In this document: piece after piece, positions 2,580 to 35,934 of the stretch | Layout: every line of letters starts with the position of its first letter | Position numbering within the stretch: position 1 is the first letter of the stretch | DNA from: a virus | DNA: 36,498 nt | Virus record (IMG/VR): IMGVR_UViG_3300007960_000070 | Coordinates: 1 to 36,498 of that record | Strand: one strand, 5' to 3' | The notes under the pieces: model-generated | What the model saw: the letters and a program-made list of their open reading frames with translations, nothing else | The model's database searches: none | What the model was told of the DNA's origin: nothing | Position numbers and translations under genes: made by a program

Positions 2580-2618
2580 AAAAGTCTAAAGTTGTTTAAA
2601 ACATAACTTTAGACTTTT
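2580..2618 (-). terminator. Intrinsic terminator between the two sheath genes
   Basis: A perfect 14-bp inverted repeat (2580-2593 paired with 2605-2618) has an 11-base loop and is followed on the minus strand by a T-rich run (TTATTTTTA). It lies 28 bases after the stop of the 1119-residue sheath gene, where a factor-independent terminator is expected. The stem is mostly A/T but long. It is the clearest terminator in the window. Confidence 0.8.
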
Positions 2619-2645
2619 AAATAATAAAATAATTATAATGTTCTA

Positions 2646-5600
2646 TTAAAATCCAGTTTGTGATAATCTACCAGCACCAGTTACTGTAACTTTATTAACA
2701 AATTTTCTTATTGGGAACGCTGGTTCAATTTCAATATCTACAATACCAAAACCTTGTTGGATTGTTTCTGGAACATTGTTTGTTTCATTCATTGTAACTT
2801 TAAATGCAGTAATACCACCATTAGTTTGTACGGTCTGTAAAAATGTTCTAATTCTATCAGATATTTCAGTTCTTAAATTTTCATCATTATATTTGAATAA
2901 ATAACTTTCAAGAATATCTTCAATTGCATCTTCAATAGTTATTAATACATCTCTTAATGATAAATTATTAAATGCTGATCTTGTAGTTTGATATGCCATT
3001 AAATCGTCAAATATAACATAACCTGCATTTGGTTTAATAACAATAGGATTTAATCCAATTTCAACTAAATATGCTCTTTCTGCACTTGTAAAATTGTATT
3101 CAACAGTTCCAGTAGACCTAGATTGTGAAATTACACCATTTGGTAAACCAGCAACTGGTAAAAATTGTTGACCGTTTAAAAACTTCTGAACAAATCTATT
3201 AGAAATTGCTGCAGCTGGTGGCACAGGGAATATTCTTCTGTTTTCTCTAACCATTGGATAAGATATAAAGAATCCTGCGTATTTAGAACCATTTGCCTCT
3301 GTTGGTAATGAATATCTAATGCTTGGACCAAGACTTAGATTTCCACCATCTTTAATATATTGTACATTTAAAGTTGGTTTTGGATTTCCAGTGGCCGGTG
3401 ATGGTGCATCTGTAAATCTTGGATTTGTAGATTCTTTAAATTCTTTAATAGATGGTGCATTCATGATTGCAAGACATTTTTGTCTATCTTTTGCAAGTCT
3501 AGTCATTATTGATTTAGGATAAGACTCCGCTGCAAGACCACCGCTAAATGTATCTACAATATATCTAAATTCTATTTGTTCACTATCAGATAATGCTTTA
3601 AATAAATTAGTGCCCGGTGACATAACTTCAATAATTTTTTCTAATTGTGATTGTTTATTTAAAAAATTTCCAGGTATATGGAATGCGCCCATTTGGAATC
3701 CAATAAGCGAATGTAAATTATAATTGCTTACAAAATCCTCAAATTTCTTCATTCTATAAATTTCTTCACCAGAATTGTTGACTATGTAAATATCATTTGC
3801 TGCAGTTATTGTATATGATCCATCTTCATTTTTAACTTTTCCAATAACTTTTGTTAAATAATCAATATATTCAGTATCTTTAAATATTTGAGTCATCAAA
3901 TAATCACCAATATTAATTAATGCGCCATTTGCTGATGATATTTTCACTGATTTTTGGTCAGTTGATTGTGAACCTGTAATAATTTTAATTGCTTTAATAA
4001 TATTTTCAGCACCAGTTTTTACAGTAAATGTTCCATCGTCTGCCGGAGACCCTACAGAAGATGTTGCAGATAATGCAGATGTACTATAGAAACTTATTTT
4101 AGCAACAGGTATACCATTAGTATCTTCAATTTTTTCAATTTTAATATATTGTCCATCTGAAGTTTGATTACCATTTATAATAATACCATCTAATGCATTT
4201 TTATAAATATCATCACCAGCATAAGAATATAACGTACTAGCAACATTTGCAACGTGTACCGGTGACGGATTGTAATCAAAACCAAAGAAATAATTTGAAT
4301 CTGCATTTTGTAATACATAATAATCTGAAACTATAATATCATGTGTTACATTTGAAATACCTGCAGATACTAAAGATGTAGATAATCCGTCAAATGCAAG
4401 ATTTGCAGTTGACCCGATAGAATCTACCGCAACATTTGAAACTCTTGCATATAATCCAGAAACTGATGAATTTGCAGTAGATTTTGGTTTAAAATATACT
4501 TGAGCACCAAGTTGAGGTCCACCTTTAGTATAAGATGTTACAGTAATATTATTTGCAGATAAATCTGTATTATCAAAAGAATATTTTAAATTTGTTTCTT
4601 CGTTATTTTTATTTTTATTTCTAGATGTTAAATATAAATAAGTTCTTTCATCACCTTGTGCATTGTTTTCATTTTTTTCAAAATAATCTACAATTGAAAA
4701 ATATGTAACATTTGCTGATATTCCAGTAGTTTCATAACCGTTAACAATTGCTTCACCTAATTTAATATTTTCTAATATAGTATTATATTCTGCAAGTGCA
4801 ATAGTTTCAGAATTAAGCGGTTTTTCAATTTTAATTCTGTTATTTAACATACCTTTATCAGTTGTAGTATAAAGTGATACAACTTCAACATTTGTTAAAC
4901 TAGATGTTGTTAAAATACTAGATAAGGTATTTGCTGAAATTGCAGTACCATATGTTTTTTCATCTATTAAATTTTTTCTATATGATAAGAAATCAATATC
5001 AGTAACTTCATTAGATTCACCATATGCTTGTGCAATTTTATGTCCAATCATATCTACATCAGAGTCTGAACTTGATCTATTAGAATAATCTTCTAGCATT
5101 TCTTTATCAATTGTTGCAAATAAACCAAGAGATGTCACTAATTGATTAATTTTAGAATCAATCGACCAATTTTCATTATTACCATCTATTAAATCTGGAA
5201 TAATTGAACCTTCTACTCTATTTAATAAAGTTACTGTTTCATCTGCTAAGAAGTTTTGAAGTTGACCTTTTTTAAGACCATTAAGATCAAAATATTTTGA
5301 ATAAACAGGATCGGCAGATAATGTTTTATAGTCGCCCCAATCACCTTCAATTGCGATTACTTCTACAAAATAATCATTCATATAATCAAAGTCTTGAATA
5401 TATTCTGGAACATTTCCTGCGCCATAAAATTCTCTTGCAGTTATATTAAATCCTCTAATATCAACTTTTCTAATTAATACTGATGTTTTAGTTTGTCCAA
5501 TATTTGCAATTGATAAAATTTTACCAAGTGATGCGCCATTTTGATCAACTAATGCTGCGAAACTTTCTTCATCTAAATTCCAAAATCTTTCCTTATCATA

Positions 5601-13414: not shown

Positions 13415-14164
13415 ATGTCTAATACCCCACAAAATTCTGAAAATTGGGAAATACAAGATTGGGACAAAATAAAGGATACTATTAAAAAAGAAGACAATCA
13501 AAATGAAGATATTTCTTTAAATGACCTTGAACGTATGTTAAATACTACACCAGATATAGTTAAAACTATTACTGAACCAATAATTCCACAATCTAATGAA
13601 CTTAATAAGTTATTTGATGACACATATAAACTTGCAAATACTAAAGCTAGAATTATTGTAAAATCATTAGCAGCATTTTATTTAGATACCGATCATCTTG
13701 AAGAAGAATATGTAAAAAGTAAAATTAAACAAGATGTATTAAATTTTAGTTCTTATATGTATAGCATAGAACAAAATCGTGAAATGATGAATGAAATTAT
13801 GCGCGAAATAAAAACTGGTAATGTAAACCCTAGAATGTTTGAAGTTTACGCTACTTTACAAAAAGCAAATCTCAGTTTAATTAAAGATAAAAAACAGTAT
13901 CAACAAATTATGGAAGCTGAATACGAAAACTTCAGAGACTCAGTTATTAAAAAATCTAATAGAATTGAAGGATTTGATGGCAAAGCTATAGAAATTGATT
14001 TTGATGAAGATAATGATAACGTATTTAGAGGCAGTAAAAATTTAATTAGTTCACTCTTAGACGACGCTGATGATATTATAACTGATAATATATTAAACCA
14101 TGAAATTCCAGACAATAATGAAGATAATATAGAACTTCCAAATTATGATGAAAAAGAAGATTAA
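13415..14164 (+). CDS. Small terminase subunit candidate (gp16-like)
   Basis: A 249-residue acidic, helical protein directly upstream of the large terminase (2 bases between stop and next ATG). The core, about residues 70-175, is a run of helices (LANTKARIIVKSLAAFYLD, QDVLNFSSYMYSIEQNREMM, NPRMFEVYATLQKANLSLI) as in T4-type small terminases, which form rings that recognise DNA and stimulate the gp17 ATPase. NPRMFEVYATLQKANL in particular resembles the conserved helix of gp16 relatives. N- and C-terminal ends are disordered and acidic (ending NYDEKED). ATG at 13415 has AAGG about 9 bases upstream. Identity rests on position and helical layout. Confidence 0.75.
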   Translation: MSNTPQNSENWEIQDWDKIKDTIKKEDNQNEDISLNDLERMLNTTPDIVKTITEPIIPQSNELNKLFDDTYKLANTKARIIVKSLAAFYLDTDHLEEEYVKSKIKQDVLNFSSYMYSIEQNREMMNEIMREIKTGNVNPRMFEVYATLQKANLSLIKDKKQYQQIMEAEYENFRDSVIKKSNRIEGFDGKAIEIDFDEDNDNVFRGSKNLISSLLDDADDIITDNILNHEIPDNNEDNIELPNYDEKED

Positions 14165-14166
14165 AA

Positions 14167-16650
14167 ATGGCAAATCAAATTCCAACTTTTAAAGGTAGTC
14201 TAGTTTCTACACTTATCCAAAAAAAGGACGATAATAAAAAAGACAATGCAAGTGTTTGGTCTACGGCAAAAGTAGAAGAAGCTATGCTATATTTAAGTAA
14301 AGGTAAAAAACCTCCGATTGGTAATCCATTTTTTGAAAGAAAATTTGGACAAAGAAAAGCCAATCTAGTATTTGAATATACTCCACAAGAAATAGAAGAA
14401 TTAAAAAAATGTAAACGAGATATATTTTATTTTGCAGAAAAATATTGTATGATTAAAACCGATGAAGGTTTATATACACATTTTAATTTAAGAGACTATC
14501 AAAAAAATGCACTACAAGTAATACAAGATAAACAAAAGATAGTGTATATGGCCTCGAGGCAAATCGGAAAATGTTCACAACCTAATATATACATAGACTT
14601 ACAAAATCCAAACGGAGAAATAAAAAAATTTTTATTTTCAGATTTTTTTTATGATTTTATAGATAAAAGTTTTTTTGATAAAATAAAAAAAGCATTATGG
14701 AAAATATATTCGAAACTAGACTTTTTAAAATATATTATTTTAATATTAATTCAATTAATAGAATATTTTGAATATAAGAATTATGACGAATCAGAAAAAA
14801 TAGTAAAAACTATAAAACTGCCAGACGGTTATAAAATAAAAACAGATACCGGATTCAAAAGCATTTCACATATACATCAGACCAAGCGTTTTCAGAAGTT
14901 TAGAATACAAACAAATTCTGGTAAATGGTTTGAGGGTGCAGATAAACACATATTTTTTGATGAAAATATGAATGAAATATTTTTAGATCAATTATCTATT
15001 GGTAGTTTAATACAAACTGAAGATGGCTTAGAAAAAGTAACATATATAAAATCTTATAGTTCACGAATTGGGATGTATGACGTTACAGTAGATGATAAAA
15101 ATCATAGATTTTATACAAATGGAATATTGAGTCATAATACTATTATGACTTCACTTACTTTATTACATTATATATGTTTTAATGTAGAAAAAAACGTGCT
15201 TTTGGTTGCAAATAAAGGTGATACTTCAAAAGAAGTTATGAATAAAATGAAAGAGATTTATGTTAGATTGCCATTTTTCATGCAACCTGGAATTGAAAAT
15301 TGGGCAGTTAACTCTGTAAGTTTTGATAATGACTGTTACATTCAAGCAATTGCAACGACGTCTACACCTGCTATTGGTTTTACTATTGACTTTTTGTATA
15401 TTGATGAGTTTGCGCATATACCTCCGAATATTGCAACATTATTTTGGAAATCTGTAATACCTACTATGGATGCAGTTAAGACGTCTAAAATGGTAATAAC
15501 GTCTACACCTAATGGTATGAATTTATTTTATGACGTGTATACTGCTGCTGAAAAAAATCTTAATGGATATACGCCTATTAAAACATATTGGCATGAAGTT
15601 CCAGGTCGTGATGATATTTGGAGAGACGATAAAGTTGCTGAACTTGGTAATGGTAATATGGATTTAGGATTTGAATTATTTAATCAGGAATATGATTTAC
15701 AATTTATAACTGATTCTATATTACTTATAGATAATGATACGTTGAATGTATTGAATAGTAAACAAATGTATTTCAAACATCAAGTTATAGATGAACTTGA
15801 AGATTCAAGTTTAGATTATTCAAAACTTAAATGGCATCCAGATTTTGAAGAATTATTAAAAAATAAAGAAAATATGCAATTTATTTTATCTATAGATTTG
15901 GGATATGGTATGCTTAAAGATTATTCAGTTATTAATATATTTAATATAACAACATTATCTAATGATGAAATAATGAATATGAACAATGCAAAAAGTGAAA
16001 TTGATTATTTAAAATTAAAACAAATTGGTTTATACCGAAGTAATGACCAAGAACCAAAAGAGGTTGCAAATATTGTAATGGAAATAGTAAAATTTTTAGG
16101 TATTGATAATACTCTTATTAATTTTGAAGTTAATGCAGCAGGTGATTATTTTTATAAATGTCTTGAAGAAGATGATGAATTTTTTGATGACCTTGTTATT
16201 CAAACAAGTCATTCTAAGATTGCAAAAATTCAAAGACCTGGTGTTAAAACTACGAATCAAAAGGTAAATTATTGTAAAGAACTTAAAACACAATTGAGAT
16301 ACGGCCAAGTTGAAGTTTATGAGTGGGAAACAATTGAAGAACTTAAAGTATTTGGTATGAATAAAGATAAAACATCATACGAAGCAATGAAAGGACATGA
16401 TGATATAGTAATGTCGATGGTTATAAATATGGGAATCAAACAAAGTTTTAATTATTCTGAAGTATTGAAAGATGTTTTAGAATTATATAGTAAGGAACAA
16501 TTGGATCTCATTTATGAGAAATTATCATTTTCAGAAAATACTGAACAAATTGATTATAACCAAGCATTTGAATATGCAGACCAATTAATAAATAGACTAC
16601 AATATAAGAGTGAAAATCCTTTAAGCGGTTTTAATAATTTTAGTGTTTAA
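14167..16650 (+). CDS. terL: Large terminase subunit (gp17-like) interrupted by a mini-intein
   Basis: The DNA-packaging motor ATPase and headful nuclease. The 827-residue precursor holds an intein at 136-324; without it the protein is 638 residues, close to T4 gp17 (610). ATPase domain: Walker A is split as SRQIGK / T (spliced SRQIGKT), Walker B is FLYIDEF with D413-E414, and the coupling motif is VITSTPNG (443-450). Nuclease domain: RNase-H-type acids D577 (LSIDLGYG), E654 (INFEVNAAGD) and D745 or D746 (KGHDDIVMS). Until the intein is removed, Walker A cannot form, so packaging activity needs protein splicing. It follows the small terminase by 2 bases, and its stop overlaps the stop of the convergent minus-strand gene by 2 bases. 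Confidence 0.96.
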   Translation: MANQIPTFKGSLVSTLIQKKDDNKKDNASVWSTAKVEEAMLYLSKGKKPPIGNPFFERKFGQRKANLVFEYTPQEIEELKKCKRDIFYFAEKYCMIKTDEGLYTHFNLRDYQKNALQVIQDKQKIVYMASRQIGKCSQPNIYIDLQNPNGEIKKFLFSDFFYDFIDKSFFDKIKKALWKIYSKLDFLKYIILILIQLIEYFEYKNYDESEKIVKTIKLPDGYKIKTDTGFKSISHIHQTKRFQKFRIQTNSGKWFEGADKHIFFDENMNEIFLDQLSIGSLIQTEDGLEKVTYIKSYSSRIGMYDVTVDDKNHRFYTNGILSHNTIMTSLTLLHYICFNVEKNVLLVANKGDTSKEVMNKMKEIYVRLPFFMQPGIENWAVNSVSFDNDCYIQAIATTSTPAIGFTIDFLYIDEFAHIPPNIATLFWKSVIPTMDAVKTSKMVITSTPNGMNLFYDVYTAAEKNLNGYTPIKTYWHEVPGRDDIWRDDKVAELGNGNMDLGFELFNQEYDLQFITDSILLIDNDTLNVLNSKQMYFKHQVIDELEDSSLDYSKLKWHPDFEELLKNKENMQFILSIDLGYGMLKDYSVINIFNITTLSNDEIMNMNNAKSEIDYLKLKQIGLYRSNDQEPKEVANIVMEIVKFLGIDNTLINFEVNAAGDYFYKCLEEDDEFFDDLVIQTSHSKIAKIQRPGVKTTNQKVNYCKELKTQLRYGQVEVYEWETIEELKVFGMNKDKTSYEAMKGHDDIVMSMVINMGIKQSFNYSEVLKDVLELYSKEQLDLIYEKLSFSENTEQIDYNQAFEYADQLINRLQYKSENPLSGFNNFSV
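14572..15138 (+). other. Mini-intein inside terminase Walker A (189 aa)
   Basis: A self-splicing protein element, residues 136-324 of the precursor. It starts with Cys136 directly after SRQIGK and ends LSHN (321-324) followed by Thr325 as the +1 nucleophile. Block B is EGADKHIFF with the catalytic His261; block F/G reads YDVTVDDKNHRFYTNGILSHN-like with penultimate His323 and terminal Asn324. All residues for splicing are present. No LAGLIDADG or HNH endonuclease motif is visible; the space between block A and block B (about 160-220) instead holds a Lys/Phe-rich helix and a very hydrophobic stretch (FLKYIILILIQLIEYFEY). It is thus a mini-intein unable to home by itself. Confidence 0.93.
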
Positions 16651-33554: not shown

Positions 33555-34760
33555 TTATAAAATTTGAGAAATTTTTGAATTTTGTATAATATTTAATTCA
33601 GTTTCAAAGTTATTAGAGTACATTTTAAGTATCTCAATGTGTTCCGTATTATCTTCGGATAATATTATAGAATAACTAGATTTATCAAATAAGAAATTAA
33701 GAAAACCTACAATTATATCTTGATCTATTATATCAAATTCTAAAGTATCATTAACTTTTAAAAATTTTATAACATTCTCGTGTTTAGGTATATCTGAAAA
33801 TTTTCCATTTTCAATATTGTTTGTTATGAATGATTTTAAACCATCTATTAAATATAATATGTGCTCCCTATTCAATTTAAGAATGTCATTAGCATCAAAA
33901 CCCGATAATATAGTATCTGCACTTATATCAGTCCATTTCCTTAAAAATTCTAATAAAGAATATGCTTTATTTCCTATAAATTTATTTGCGTGTATTTCAG
34001 TATATTTAATTATATTATCAATATCTTTTTCATTATTTAAAGCGTATAAAAGAGATTTTGAAAAAGACGATAATGACCTTGGTGATAAATAGGATATTAT
34101 ATCATCATTTTCATCGTCATCAGGACCTTCTGTTAAAAAATGCTTATTAGATGTAATCCATTCTAAAATTATAGGATTTATATTTTTAATAGCATAATTG
34201 TTTAACCAATAATCAAAATCAAATTCAAATTCATAATGTATAAGTCTACCACGCATTGCCATAGAAAAATCTTCAATATGTGAATCGTCCATATTTGAAG
34301 TAGCAATAAAATATACGTTGTCATTAAATTTAAAATTATAACCTATTTCACGTTCCATTAAAATTTGCAATGCCGCATTTTGGATTTCACGACGTGCTCT
34401 ATTTAATTCTTCAAATATAATAATTGTAGGTCTTTGATTTGCTTTAATTGCCCAATATGGAGGAATTTCTTTAACACAATCTTCATTGTCAATATTATCT
34501 ACCTTTGGATATAAACCAATTTCACTTTCATCTTTATGTGTTAAACGAATATCAATATACTGATATTCTAATTTTTTACACATATCTCTAATAATTGCAG
34601 TTTTACCAACACCAGGGTCACCTGACATTAAAACACAACCACCTGTATTTACGGTAGAATGCATCATTTGAAAAAATGATTGTTGTAATTCAGTTAAATT
34701 TTTAAAATTTGGTATACTAGATTCAAGTAAAGGATATTTTAAAAAATTATTAGATTTCAA
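33555..34760 (-). CDS. MoxR-type AAA+ ATPase
   Basis: A 401-residue AAA+ ATPase. Walker A is GDPGVGKT (47-54), Walker B is IIIFEELN (113-120), sensor 1 is ATSN (153-156) and the following AMRGRLIHYEF holds the arginine-finger region. This set is typical of MoxR/CbbQ-type ATPases, chaperones that act with a VWA-domain partner. The partner gene is directly upstream and overlaps this one by 11 bases. The TTG at 34760 is used as start, with GAGAGAT upstream; the next ATG (residue 32) would leave a shortened N-terminus. The C-terminal half (about 200-401) is an unrecognised helical region. Confidence 0.85.
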   Translation of the reverse strand: MKSNNFLKYPLLESSIPNFKNLTELQQSFFQMMHSTVNTGGCVLMSGDPGVGKTAIIRDMCKKLEYQYIDIRLTHKDESEIGLYPKVDNIDNEDCVKEIPPYWAIKANQRPTIIIFEELNRARREIQNAALQILMEREIGYNFKFNDNVYFIATSNMDDSHIEDFSMAMRGRLIHYEFEFDFDYWLNNYAIKNINPIILEWITSNKHFLTEGPDDDENDDIISYLSPRSLSSFSKSLLYALNNEKDIDNIIKYTEIHANKFIGNKAYSLLEFLRKWTDISADTILSGFDANDILKLNREHILYLIDGLKSFITNNIENGKFSDIPKHENVIKFLKVNDTLEFDIIDQDIIVGFLNFLFDKSSYSIILSEDNTEHIEILKMYSNNFETELNIIQNSKISQIL

Positions 34761-35934
34761 TTTTTATCTCTCTATATTTTTTACTTTTTTGATATAATGT
34801 AGGTTTTAAATTTGTATAAACTAATATAACTTCATTTAATTTTGATAAATCTAATTTATCAATATAACCATCTGTTATAATTATAGTTCCATTTTTATTA
34901 AGTGTTTTGTTTTTTGCAATATAATCTATACCAGGTTGAAGAATTGTTCCACCACATCCTATAAAATTTAGTTTTTTAAGGTCTGACGCCTTTTCATATA
35001 TTTCATGTGATTGAACTATAGTATCAACTTTAATTAAATTCATATGTAACATAGAATTTGTAATAATTCCAATAACTTCTTTTAATATATCTTTCATAGA
35101 ACCTGAAACATCTGCAATACAATTAAATGACATACTAGTTTTAATATTTCCTTTAACACCTGGTATGCCTTTCTTATTCAATTTTCTAAAAGTTTTTCTT
35201 CTATTAGAATATGCAGAGTCACTCATTAAAGTCTTTAATAATTTAACTGGGTTTTCTTTTCTTTTTTTAACATCATATATTAAATTTTTAATAATTCCAG
35301 GTATATTACCTTTTAATTCATTTTGTATTTCTTTATTGATTTTATTTAATTTATGTTGAATTTCTTCTTCAGTAATATCAAAAGAATCTAAATCAAAATG
35401 CTCATCAAAATATTCGCCTTTTTTTAAATTGTCAAACATTTGTTGAGTCTCAAAATATGTATGATCTTTTTTGTCTTTATTACTAATTAACCATTCATAA
35501 ATAGATTCAAATACAATTGGTCCATTATATTCATTTGGAAGTTTTATAATATTTTCAGGTTCTATAATATCCACATTGACTACCTTTTTTATATTTGCTG
35601 CTTGTTTATTTACAACCATATCCATCGCATAATTTGCAATATTTCTATCATATTTTTTAATTCTAGATAAATGTAAATTAATACAATGAAATATTTCATG
35701 CAATAAAATAAATCTAACTTCTGCTTCAGTTATATTTTCTATAAAATTGGTATTATACAATAATTTAAAACCATTTTTACTTACAGTTACCGCCATGGTT
35801 TTTATTTTATCATTTTCTTCAAAAACCATTTTAGATAAAAAATGCCCAAAATACGCTAAATTATTTTTGGGCAATATTATCCAATTTATAATATTATTCA
35901 TAATAATTGGATGTATATTTTTTTTATTTATCAT
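34750..35934 (-). CDS. VWA-like / metallopeptidase-like protein (DUF2201 type), MoxR partner
   Basis: A 394-residue protein with an N-terminal zinc-peptidase-like motif HEIFHCINLH (79-88, HExxH) and a C-terminal von Willebrand A domain. The MIDAS residues are visible: DVSGSM (275-280), the Thr in GCGGTILQPG (330) and IITDGYID (Asp355). This two-part layout is that of the DUF2201 family, usually coded next to a MoxR ATPase, as here. The pair probably remodels or inserts metal into a target. The HExxH suggests a bound metal but catalysis is not shown. It begins 2 bases after the broken phosphatase remnant. Confidence 0.82.
   Translation of the reverse strand: MINKKNIHPIIMNNIINWIILPKNNLAYFGHFLSKMVFEENDKIKTMAVTVSKNGFKLLYNTNFIENITEAEVRFILLHEIFHCINLHLSRIKKYDRNIANYAMDMVVNKQAANIKKVVNVDIIEPENIIKLPNEYNGPIVFESIYEWLISNKDKKDHTYFETQQMFDNLKKGEYFDEHFDLDSFDITEEEIQHKLNKINKEIQNELKGNIPGIIKNLIYDVKKRKENPVKLLKTLMSDSAYSNRRKTFRKLNKKGIPGVKGNIKTSMSFNCIADVSGSMKDILKEVIGIITNSMLHMNLIKVDTIVQSHEIYEKASDLKKLNFIGCGGTILQPGIDYIAKNKTLNKNGTIIITDGYIDKLDLSKLNEVILVYTNLKPTLYQKSKKYREIKIEI

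What the first reader, a model, noticed from the sequence alone, without database searches (positions are those of the whole stretch)
14572..15138. Mini-intein splits the terminase Walker A motif between GK and T
The sequence shows SRQIGK, then Cys136 ... LSHN324, then Thr325, with block B and block F/G present. The ATP-binding loop of the packaging motor is therefore absent until splicing. No homing endonuclease motif is visible. Inteins favour conserved ATPase motifs, but a small, endonuclease-free one at this exact site could be kept as a switch that delays packaging. It may also be one step from a split intein.
Basis: partly seen in the sequence, partly recalled or inferred. Interest (0 to 1): 0.72.

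Follow-up and report, generated by a model that had tools for sequence, protein, structure and literature searches.

The report
Re-fused split intein in phage terminase
A phage's DNA-packaging motor gene carries a small self-removing protein insert right in its ATP-binding loop; in nearly all related phages the same insert is broken into two separately made halves, usually with a DNA-cutting gene between them, so this one-piece copy most likely lost that gene and grew back together.

Summary
ORF 14167-16650 (+) is a T4-type terminase large subunit (TerL, gp17). It holds a 189-residue, endonuclease-free intein (14572-15138) between SRQIGK and T of Walker A. Removing it restores a gapless 638-residue TerL. 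The site itself is not new: P-loop TerL inteins are published and annotated.

Among 99 distinct inteins at this TerL site, 82 are split. In the window's own sub-family (85), 78 are split, mostly with a Vsr-like homing endonuclease gene between IntN and IntC. Only 5 are contiguous. The endonuclease is caught decaying (gaps of 9-590 nt, C-terminal scars). The window's linker is the IntN helical tail joined directly to the IntC helical head; AlphaFold makes it a hairpin with the seam in its turn. The five contiguous copies are not one clade (AU p = 2.5e-8), and at least two (L126, L114) are nested inside split clades, so re-fusion occurs.

For the window itself re-fusion is favoured but not proven: a never-split ancestor is not rejected (p = 0.22-0.73). 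Among the closest relatives found in IMG/VR, 73 of 80 have an empty site, so a selected packaging switch is not supported. Splicing was not tested.

The parts
13415..14164 (+). probable terminase small subunit (gp16-like), 249 aa, directly upstream
   Evidence: 28% identity to the ORF upstream of terL in L056 (E 2e-12) and in L104 (E 4e-10), pairwise comparisons only; gp16-gp17 position inferred
14167..14571 (+). TerL N-extein, residues 1-135, ending in the first half of Walker A (SRQIGK, 14554-14571)
   Evidence: ORF and motif; gapless alignment of the joined flanks to L003/L004
14572..14664 (+). intein N-terminal splicing region (IntN core, residues 1-31), Cys1 nucleophile, block A
   Evidence: aligned with IntN of split relatives; AF2 pLDDT only 54-62 here because few full-length sequences were allowed
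14665..14721 (+). IntN-type helical tail (residues 32-50, DKSFFDKIKKALWKIYSKLD), first arm of the hairpin; the seam lies at its 3' end
   Evidence: aligned with IntN tails ending just before a stop codon in split relatives; helix 32-45 in the AF2 model
14722..14778 (+). IntC-type helical head (residues 51-69, FLKYIILILIQLIEYFEYK), second arm of the hairpin; about 3 codons including the IntC start codon are missing compared with split relatives
   Evidence: aligned with the first residues of IntC proteins; helix 49-69 in the AF2 model
14797..15138 (+). intein C-terminal splicing region (IntC core, residues 76-189): block B ADKH (14938-14949), block F (15073-15126), block G ILSHN (15124-15138)
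   Evidence: invariant columns A123, D124, H126, M168, D170, H178, N183, N189 across 29 relatives; intein_Cterm match
15139..16650 (+). TerL C-extein from T325 (+1 nucleophile and Walker A Thr): rest of the ATPase domain and the nuclease domain
   Evidence: Pfam Terminase_6N at 325-465, weak Terminase_6C at 618-752

Best explanation
It is a class-1 mini-intein that should excise itself in cis. Cys1 attacks at the N-junction, the chain moves to Thr+1, Asn189 cyclises, and an intact Walker A (SRQIGKT) is left in a 638-residue terminase. It belongs to a homing-element family specific to this TerL site whose usual form is a split intein: IntN with a helical tail, a Vsr-like homing endonuclease gene overlapping the start of IntC, and IntC with a helical head. 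In the window lineage the endonuclease was most likely lost by deletion, and the two tails were joined in frame into a helical hairpin, re-creating a one-piece, immobile intein. It persists because only an exact deletion would restore the essential motor gene, and because the occupied site should not be cut by the endonuclease of co-infecting phages. Shown: anatomy, fold, family, distribution, endonuclease decay in relatives, several separate contiguous lineages. Inferred: splicing activity, the direction of change in the window itself, the reason for persistence.
For: Intein anatomy and fold. Split relatives at the same site: LR756500, with IntN, an MTES_1575-like nuclease ORF and IntC in a row; LR756501, with the halves 12 kb apart. 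Of 99 distinct inteins at the site (95% identity), 82 split, 12 contiguous, 5 unclear; in the window's helix-tail clade 78 split, 5 contiguous, 2 unclear. Of 67 split cases with both halves located, 53 have gaps of at least 700 nt, and 47 gaps hold an ORF of at least 290 aa; 14 have short gaps. Scars: L056 keeps KCLDFLYD* in an 18-nt gap; L098 and L268 have IntN running into endonuclease C-terminal codons; L268 is very close to L132/L152, which keep a full-size endonuclease ORF. The window linker equals IntN tail plus IntC head less about 3 codons, with the seam in the hairpin turn. Contiguous copies are not one clade, AU p 2.5e-8; L126 pairs with split L222 (100/96) inside starred split clades, and L114 lies inside a starred clade of splits. 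The window falls among splits, support 84/84 within 91/92.
Against: Trees do not reject the window intein as sister to all its helix-tail relatives (p 0.48, 0.73, 0.22), so a never-split ancestor is possible for the window. No endonuclease scar is identifiable at the window's seam. No close relative of the window's TerL was found (at most about 45% identity). Nothing here shows that the intein splices.
Confidence: 0.64

Rival explanations
1. The window keeps the ancestral one-piece state. A contiguous intein with a helical hairpin linker came first, and a homing endonuclease gene inserted once into the hairpin turn, splitting the intein in the other lineages.
For: AU tests do not reject the window outside all helix-tail relatives; all splits lie at about the same position, as one insertion would give.
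Against: The best tree with most columns places the window among splits. Other contiguous members are nested in split clades, so re-fusion does occur. The outgroup one-piece inteins of Ackermannviridae lack the helical linker.
Confidence: 0.28
2. The intein is retained as a post-translational switch that delays packaging until conditions allow splicing.
For: The P-loop cannot be complete before splicing; no endonuclease remains to drive homing; small inteins at this site are found in the several Ackermannviridae genera sampled here.
Against: In the window's TerL lineage 73 of the 80 best matches lack it. The family's pattern is that of a mobile, decaying element. No regulatory feature was found.
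Confidence: 0.05
3. The insertion does not splice and TerL works, or is dead, with it in place.
For: No experimental test; block B has Ala instead of Thr.
Against: Cys1, block B His, His188-Asn189 and Thr+1 are present; the ADxH motif is invariant in the family; the TerL frame is open and the Walker halves join exactly.
Confidence: 0.03

Closest known systems
Mycobacteriophage TerL1-a intein (PMC5050341)
   Same: Intein in the TerL P-loop, between the invariant Lys and Thr
   Different: Terminase_1 family host protein; the paper reports TerL inteins that splice and have endonuclease activity; no helical hairpin is described in the passages read
Ackermannviridae TerL inteins (e.g. Salmonella phage Mooltan, PMC6486243; CBA120, LIMEstone1)
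   Same: Contiguous, endonuclease-free intein at exactly the same site of a gp17-type TerL
   Different: About 159 aa in Mooltan, no helical hairpin linker; intein outside the window's helix-tail clade
Fractured-gene split inteins with Vsr-like homing endonuclease (gp41-type; L005 here)
   Same: IntN, free-standing endonuclease gene and IntC in that order; the L005 IntC in a DnaB-like helicase is 40% identical to the window intein
   Different: Different host gene, no helical tails, split rather than contiguous. The founding paper (Dassa 2009) was not readable here; known to me from memory and as a reference in PMC10448857
AceL-TerL, GOS-TerL, Cat, VidaL atypical split inteins
   Same: Short IntN and long IntC; Cat and VidaL are among the best sequence or structure matches; AceL and GOS come from TerL
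   Different: AceL, GOS and Cat have Cys at +1 (PMC11766414), so a different TerL site is inferred, probably the QEH|C site seen in PX29 and Va1; no helical tails

Membership tests
Intein (class 1) | Cys or Ser at position 1, block B His, His-Asn C-terminus, Cys/Ser/Thr at +1 | tested here: met
   C136 (intein residue 1), H126 of the intein, H188-N189, T325
Intein (class 1) | HINT fold | tested here: met
   AF2 mean pLDDT 83.2 (first 50 residues weak), Foldseek to 6vgv E 2.2e-8 and many other inteins
Intein (class 1) | host protein intact and homologous to intein-free relatives once removed | tested here: met
   638-aa joined product aligns without a gap to L003/L004 at the site
Intein (class 1) | demonstrated splicing | not testable with these tools
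   needs expression
Mini-intein | contiguous and without endonuclease domain | tested here: met
   single ORF; linker of about 45 residues is a helical hairpin; no endonuclease homology in the window
Split intein with free-standing homing endonuclease (TerL Walker A family) | IntN and IntC on separate ORFs | tested here: not met
   the window is one ORF and the IntC start codon is missing
Split intein with free-standing homing endonuclease (TerL Walker A family) | shared descent: same site, same core, same helical tails | tested here: met
   clade support 97/98 to 100/99; seam table
AceL-TerL / GOS-TerL | Cys+1 insertion site, IntN of 25-37 aa, split | tested here: not met
   Thr+1, Walker A site, contiguous

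The most novel reading that the evidence does not exclude
Naturally split inteins repeatedly grow back into one-piece inteins: after loss of the homing endonuclease gene the helical tails of IntN and IntC fuse into a hairpin, and the window is one of about five separate cases at a single TerL site.
Probability: 0.6. Interest if true: 0.55.

Novelty: new variant of a known kind. Interest (0 to 1): 0.42.

Why it matters
A review describes mini-inteins arising by loss of an embedded endonuclease domain, and split inteins arising by a break in a mini-intein (PMC7765530). Here one insertion site shows the path in the other direction with its intermediates: split with endonuclease, split with a decayed or scarred endonuclease, and one-piece. 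That makes the reversibility of intein splitting directly testable. The helical tails are also candidates for natural association elements of split inteins, of possible use in protein trans-splicing.

Tried and rejected
Search with the single window TerL in IMG/VR found nothing; alignments were needed. Straboviridae and Va1 TerL split inteins (PX29, 92A1, EniLVp02, Va1) were first thought to share the site, but they sit at QEH|C in the C-terminal part of TerL. CPt10 is inserted 3 residues upstream (RQ|SSK). Intein versus extein identity as proof of horizontal transfer of the window intein: rejected, because mean intein identity stays near 47-51% for extein identities from 20 to 60%. An endonuclease scar in the window seam (KLDFL resembles KCxDFL): rejected, since the same residues are explained by the ordinary IntN tail and IntC head. 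An alignment that mixed IntN and IntC fragments misplaced IntN and was not used for folding.

Full report
OBSERVATION. ORF 14167-16650 (+), 827 aa, is a T4-type large terminase (Pfam Terminase_6N, E 8.5e-14; PHROG terminase families). Residues 136-324 (14572-15138) form an intein between SRQIGK and T. Support: NCBIfam intein_Cterm above its cut-off, PDB matches to the Cat, gp41-1 and VidaL inteins, and an AlphaFold model (mean pLDDT 83.2, weak in the first 50 residues) whose best Foldseek matches are inteins (VidaL E 2.2e-8). Joining the flanks gives 638 aa and aligns to intein-free L003/L004 with no gap at the site. No homing endonuclease relative is present in the window.

THE SITE IS KNOWN. 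In mycobacteriophages the TerL1-a intein sits between the same Lys and Thr (PMC5050341). In gp17-type TerL the same site is occupied in Ackermannviridae (about 159-aa mini-intein, annotated as such in phage Mooltan; PMC6486243). A Campylobacter phage terminase intein was also published (PMC3322345); in the related CPt10 it sits three residues upstream.

THE RELATIVES ARE SPLIT. The closest TerL in the phage collection, LR756500 (462 kb), has TerL-N plus IntN (L002 1983-2558), a 366-aa ORF with weak MTES_1575/DUF559 nuclease similarity (2585-3685), and IntC plus TerL-C starting on the last base of that ORF; the equivalent L104 ORF has weak Vsr similarity. LR756501 (735 kb) has the halves 12 kb apart, and Salicola phage SCTP-2 about 173 kb apart. 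Among the 80 best IMG/VR matches to the TerL C-extein, 73 have an empty site and 6 have an intein (one is partial), all 6 split. Three scans for the intein itself, pooled with the other loci, gave 216 loci at this TerL site, 99 distinct at 95% identity: 82 split, 12 contiguous, 5 unclear. The helix-tail clade that holds the window has 85: 78 split, 5 contiguous (window, L126, L138, L114, L194), 2 unclear.

ENDONUCLEASE DECAY. Of 67 splits with both halves located, 53 have gaps of 700 nt or more, and 47 gaps hold an ORF of at least 290 aa, many ending in KCIxFLN-like residues and carrying EFxGxYWH-like motifs. Fourteen have short gaps with fragments or nothing. L056 keeps only KCLDFLYD* in an 18-nt gap. 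L098 reads from IntN into the endonuclease C-terminus. L268 has lost nearly all of it (scar NADPN*TIEKCIKFISG), while its very close relatives L132/L152 keep a full-size ORF. GGAA occurs at both deletion ends, suggesting short-repeat deletion (inference). In L303 the IntN stop overlaps the open IntC frame: one frameshift from fusion.

THE WINDOW'S LINKER. The window reads ...SFFDKIKKALWKIYSKLD-FLKYIILILIQLIEYFEYKN.... The left part matches IntN tails (e.g. L104 ...LTFLETIKYILYRILSKLA*), the right part IntC heads (e.g. L119 MHKFLKNIILFLIQLIEKWEYRN, L104 MRIGLRYIILFLIQLIEK). Only about three codons, including the start codon, are missing. In the model the two parts are helices 32-45 and 49-69, with the seam in or next to the turn.

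DIRECTION. The five contiguous copies are not one clade (AU p 2.5e-8). L126 pairs with split L222 (100/96) inside nested starred split clades; L114 lies within a starred clade of splits; L138 pairs with split L118 (98/89). So re-fusion happens in this family. The window falls among splits in the tree with most columns (84/84 within 91/92), but a position outside all others is not rejected (p 0.48, 0.73, 0.22). For the window, re-fusion is therefore favoured by analogy and parsimony, not proven. The TerL extein tree is discordant: the window's TerL is a long branch near the LR756501/L003 group. Intein identity is nearly independent of extein identity below 60%, which fits lateral movement but does not prove it for the window.

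MECHANISM. Splicing in cis by the standard class-1 route is expected from Cys1, the block B His, His-Asn and Thr+1; it was not tested. The P-loop cannot be complete before splicing, so activity of the motor must wait for it, but patchy occurrence and endonuclease decay point to a selfish element rather than a selected switch. One-piece inteins in Ackermannviridae are common, so a role there is not excluded.

LIMITS. IMG/VR contigs are fragments; classes rest on ORF geometry. The key older papers on split inteins (Dassa 2009; the GOS-TerL paper) were not held, so novelty of the split Walker A family and of re-fusion is judged against the accessible papers only.

Noticed in passing
L002 5663-6475 (LR756500); L024 652-1824 (-) (LR756501): Truncated second TerL-like ORFs with a degenerate Walker A (QMGIS / QMGIT instead of xxGKT) in both huge-phage genomes that carry the split intein.
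   Followed up: no
L114, L147, L164: Inteins of one sub-clade begin with Ser or Thr instead of Cys.
   Followed up: no
L023 and L008 (Salicola phage SCTP-2): TerL-N+IntN and IntC+TerL-C lie about 173 kb apart, and a second intein seems to begin at Walker B (LLY|C).
   Followed up: partly
L013, L015, L016, L017: Separate set of split TerL inteins at a QEH|C site in the C-terminal part, some with GIY-YIG-like or Vsr-like endonuclease, probably the AceL/GOS-TerL site.
   Followed up: partly
L122, L127: The gap between IntN and IntC holds an ORF of about 650 aa of a different, larger endonuclease-like type; L002 6569-8416 (DUF7487 with Vsr-like domain) looks similar.
   Followed up: no
window 34750-35934 (-): PHROG names this an HNH endonuclease, but Pfam finds a DUF2201 metallopeptidase/VWA protein next to an AAA ATPase (33555-34760).
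   Followed up: partly
L002 (LSSQ|T), L007 (LNLN|T): Two split inteins lack the penultimate His; one ends in Gln instead of Asn.
   Followed up: no
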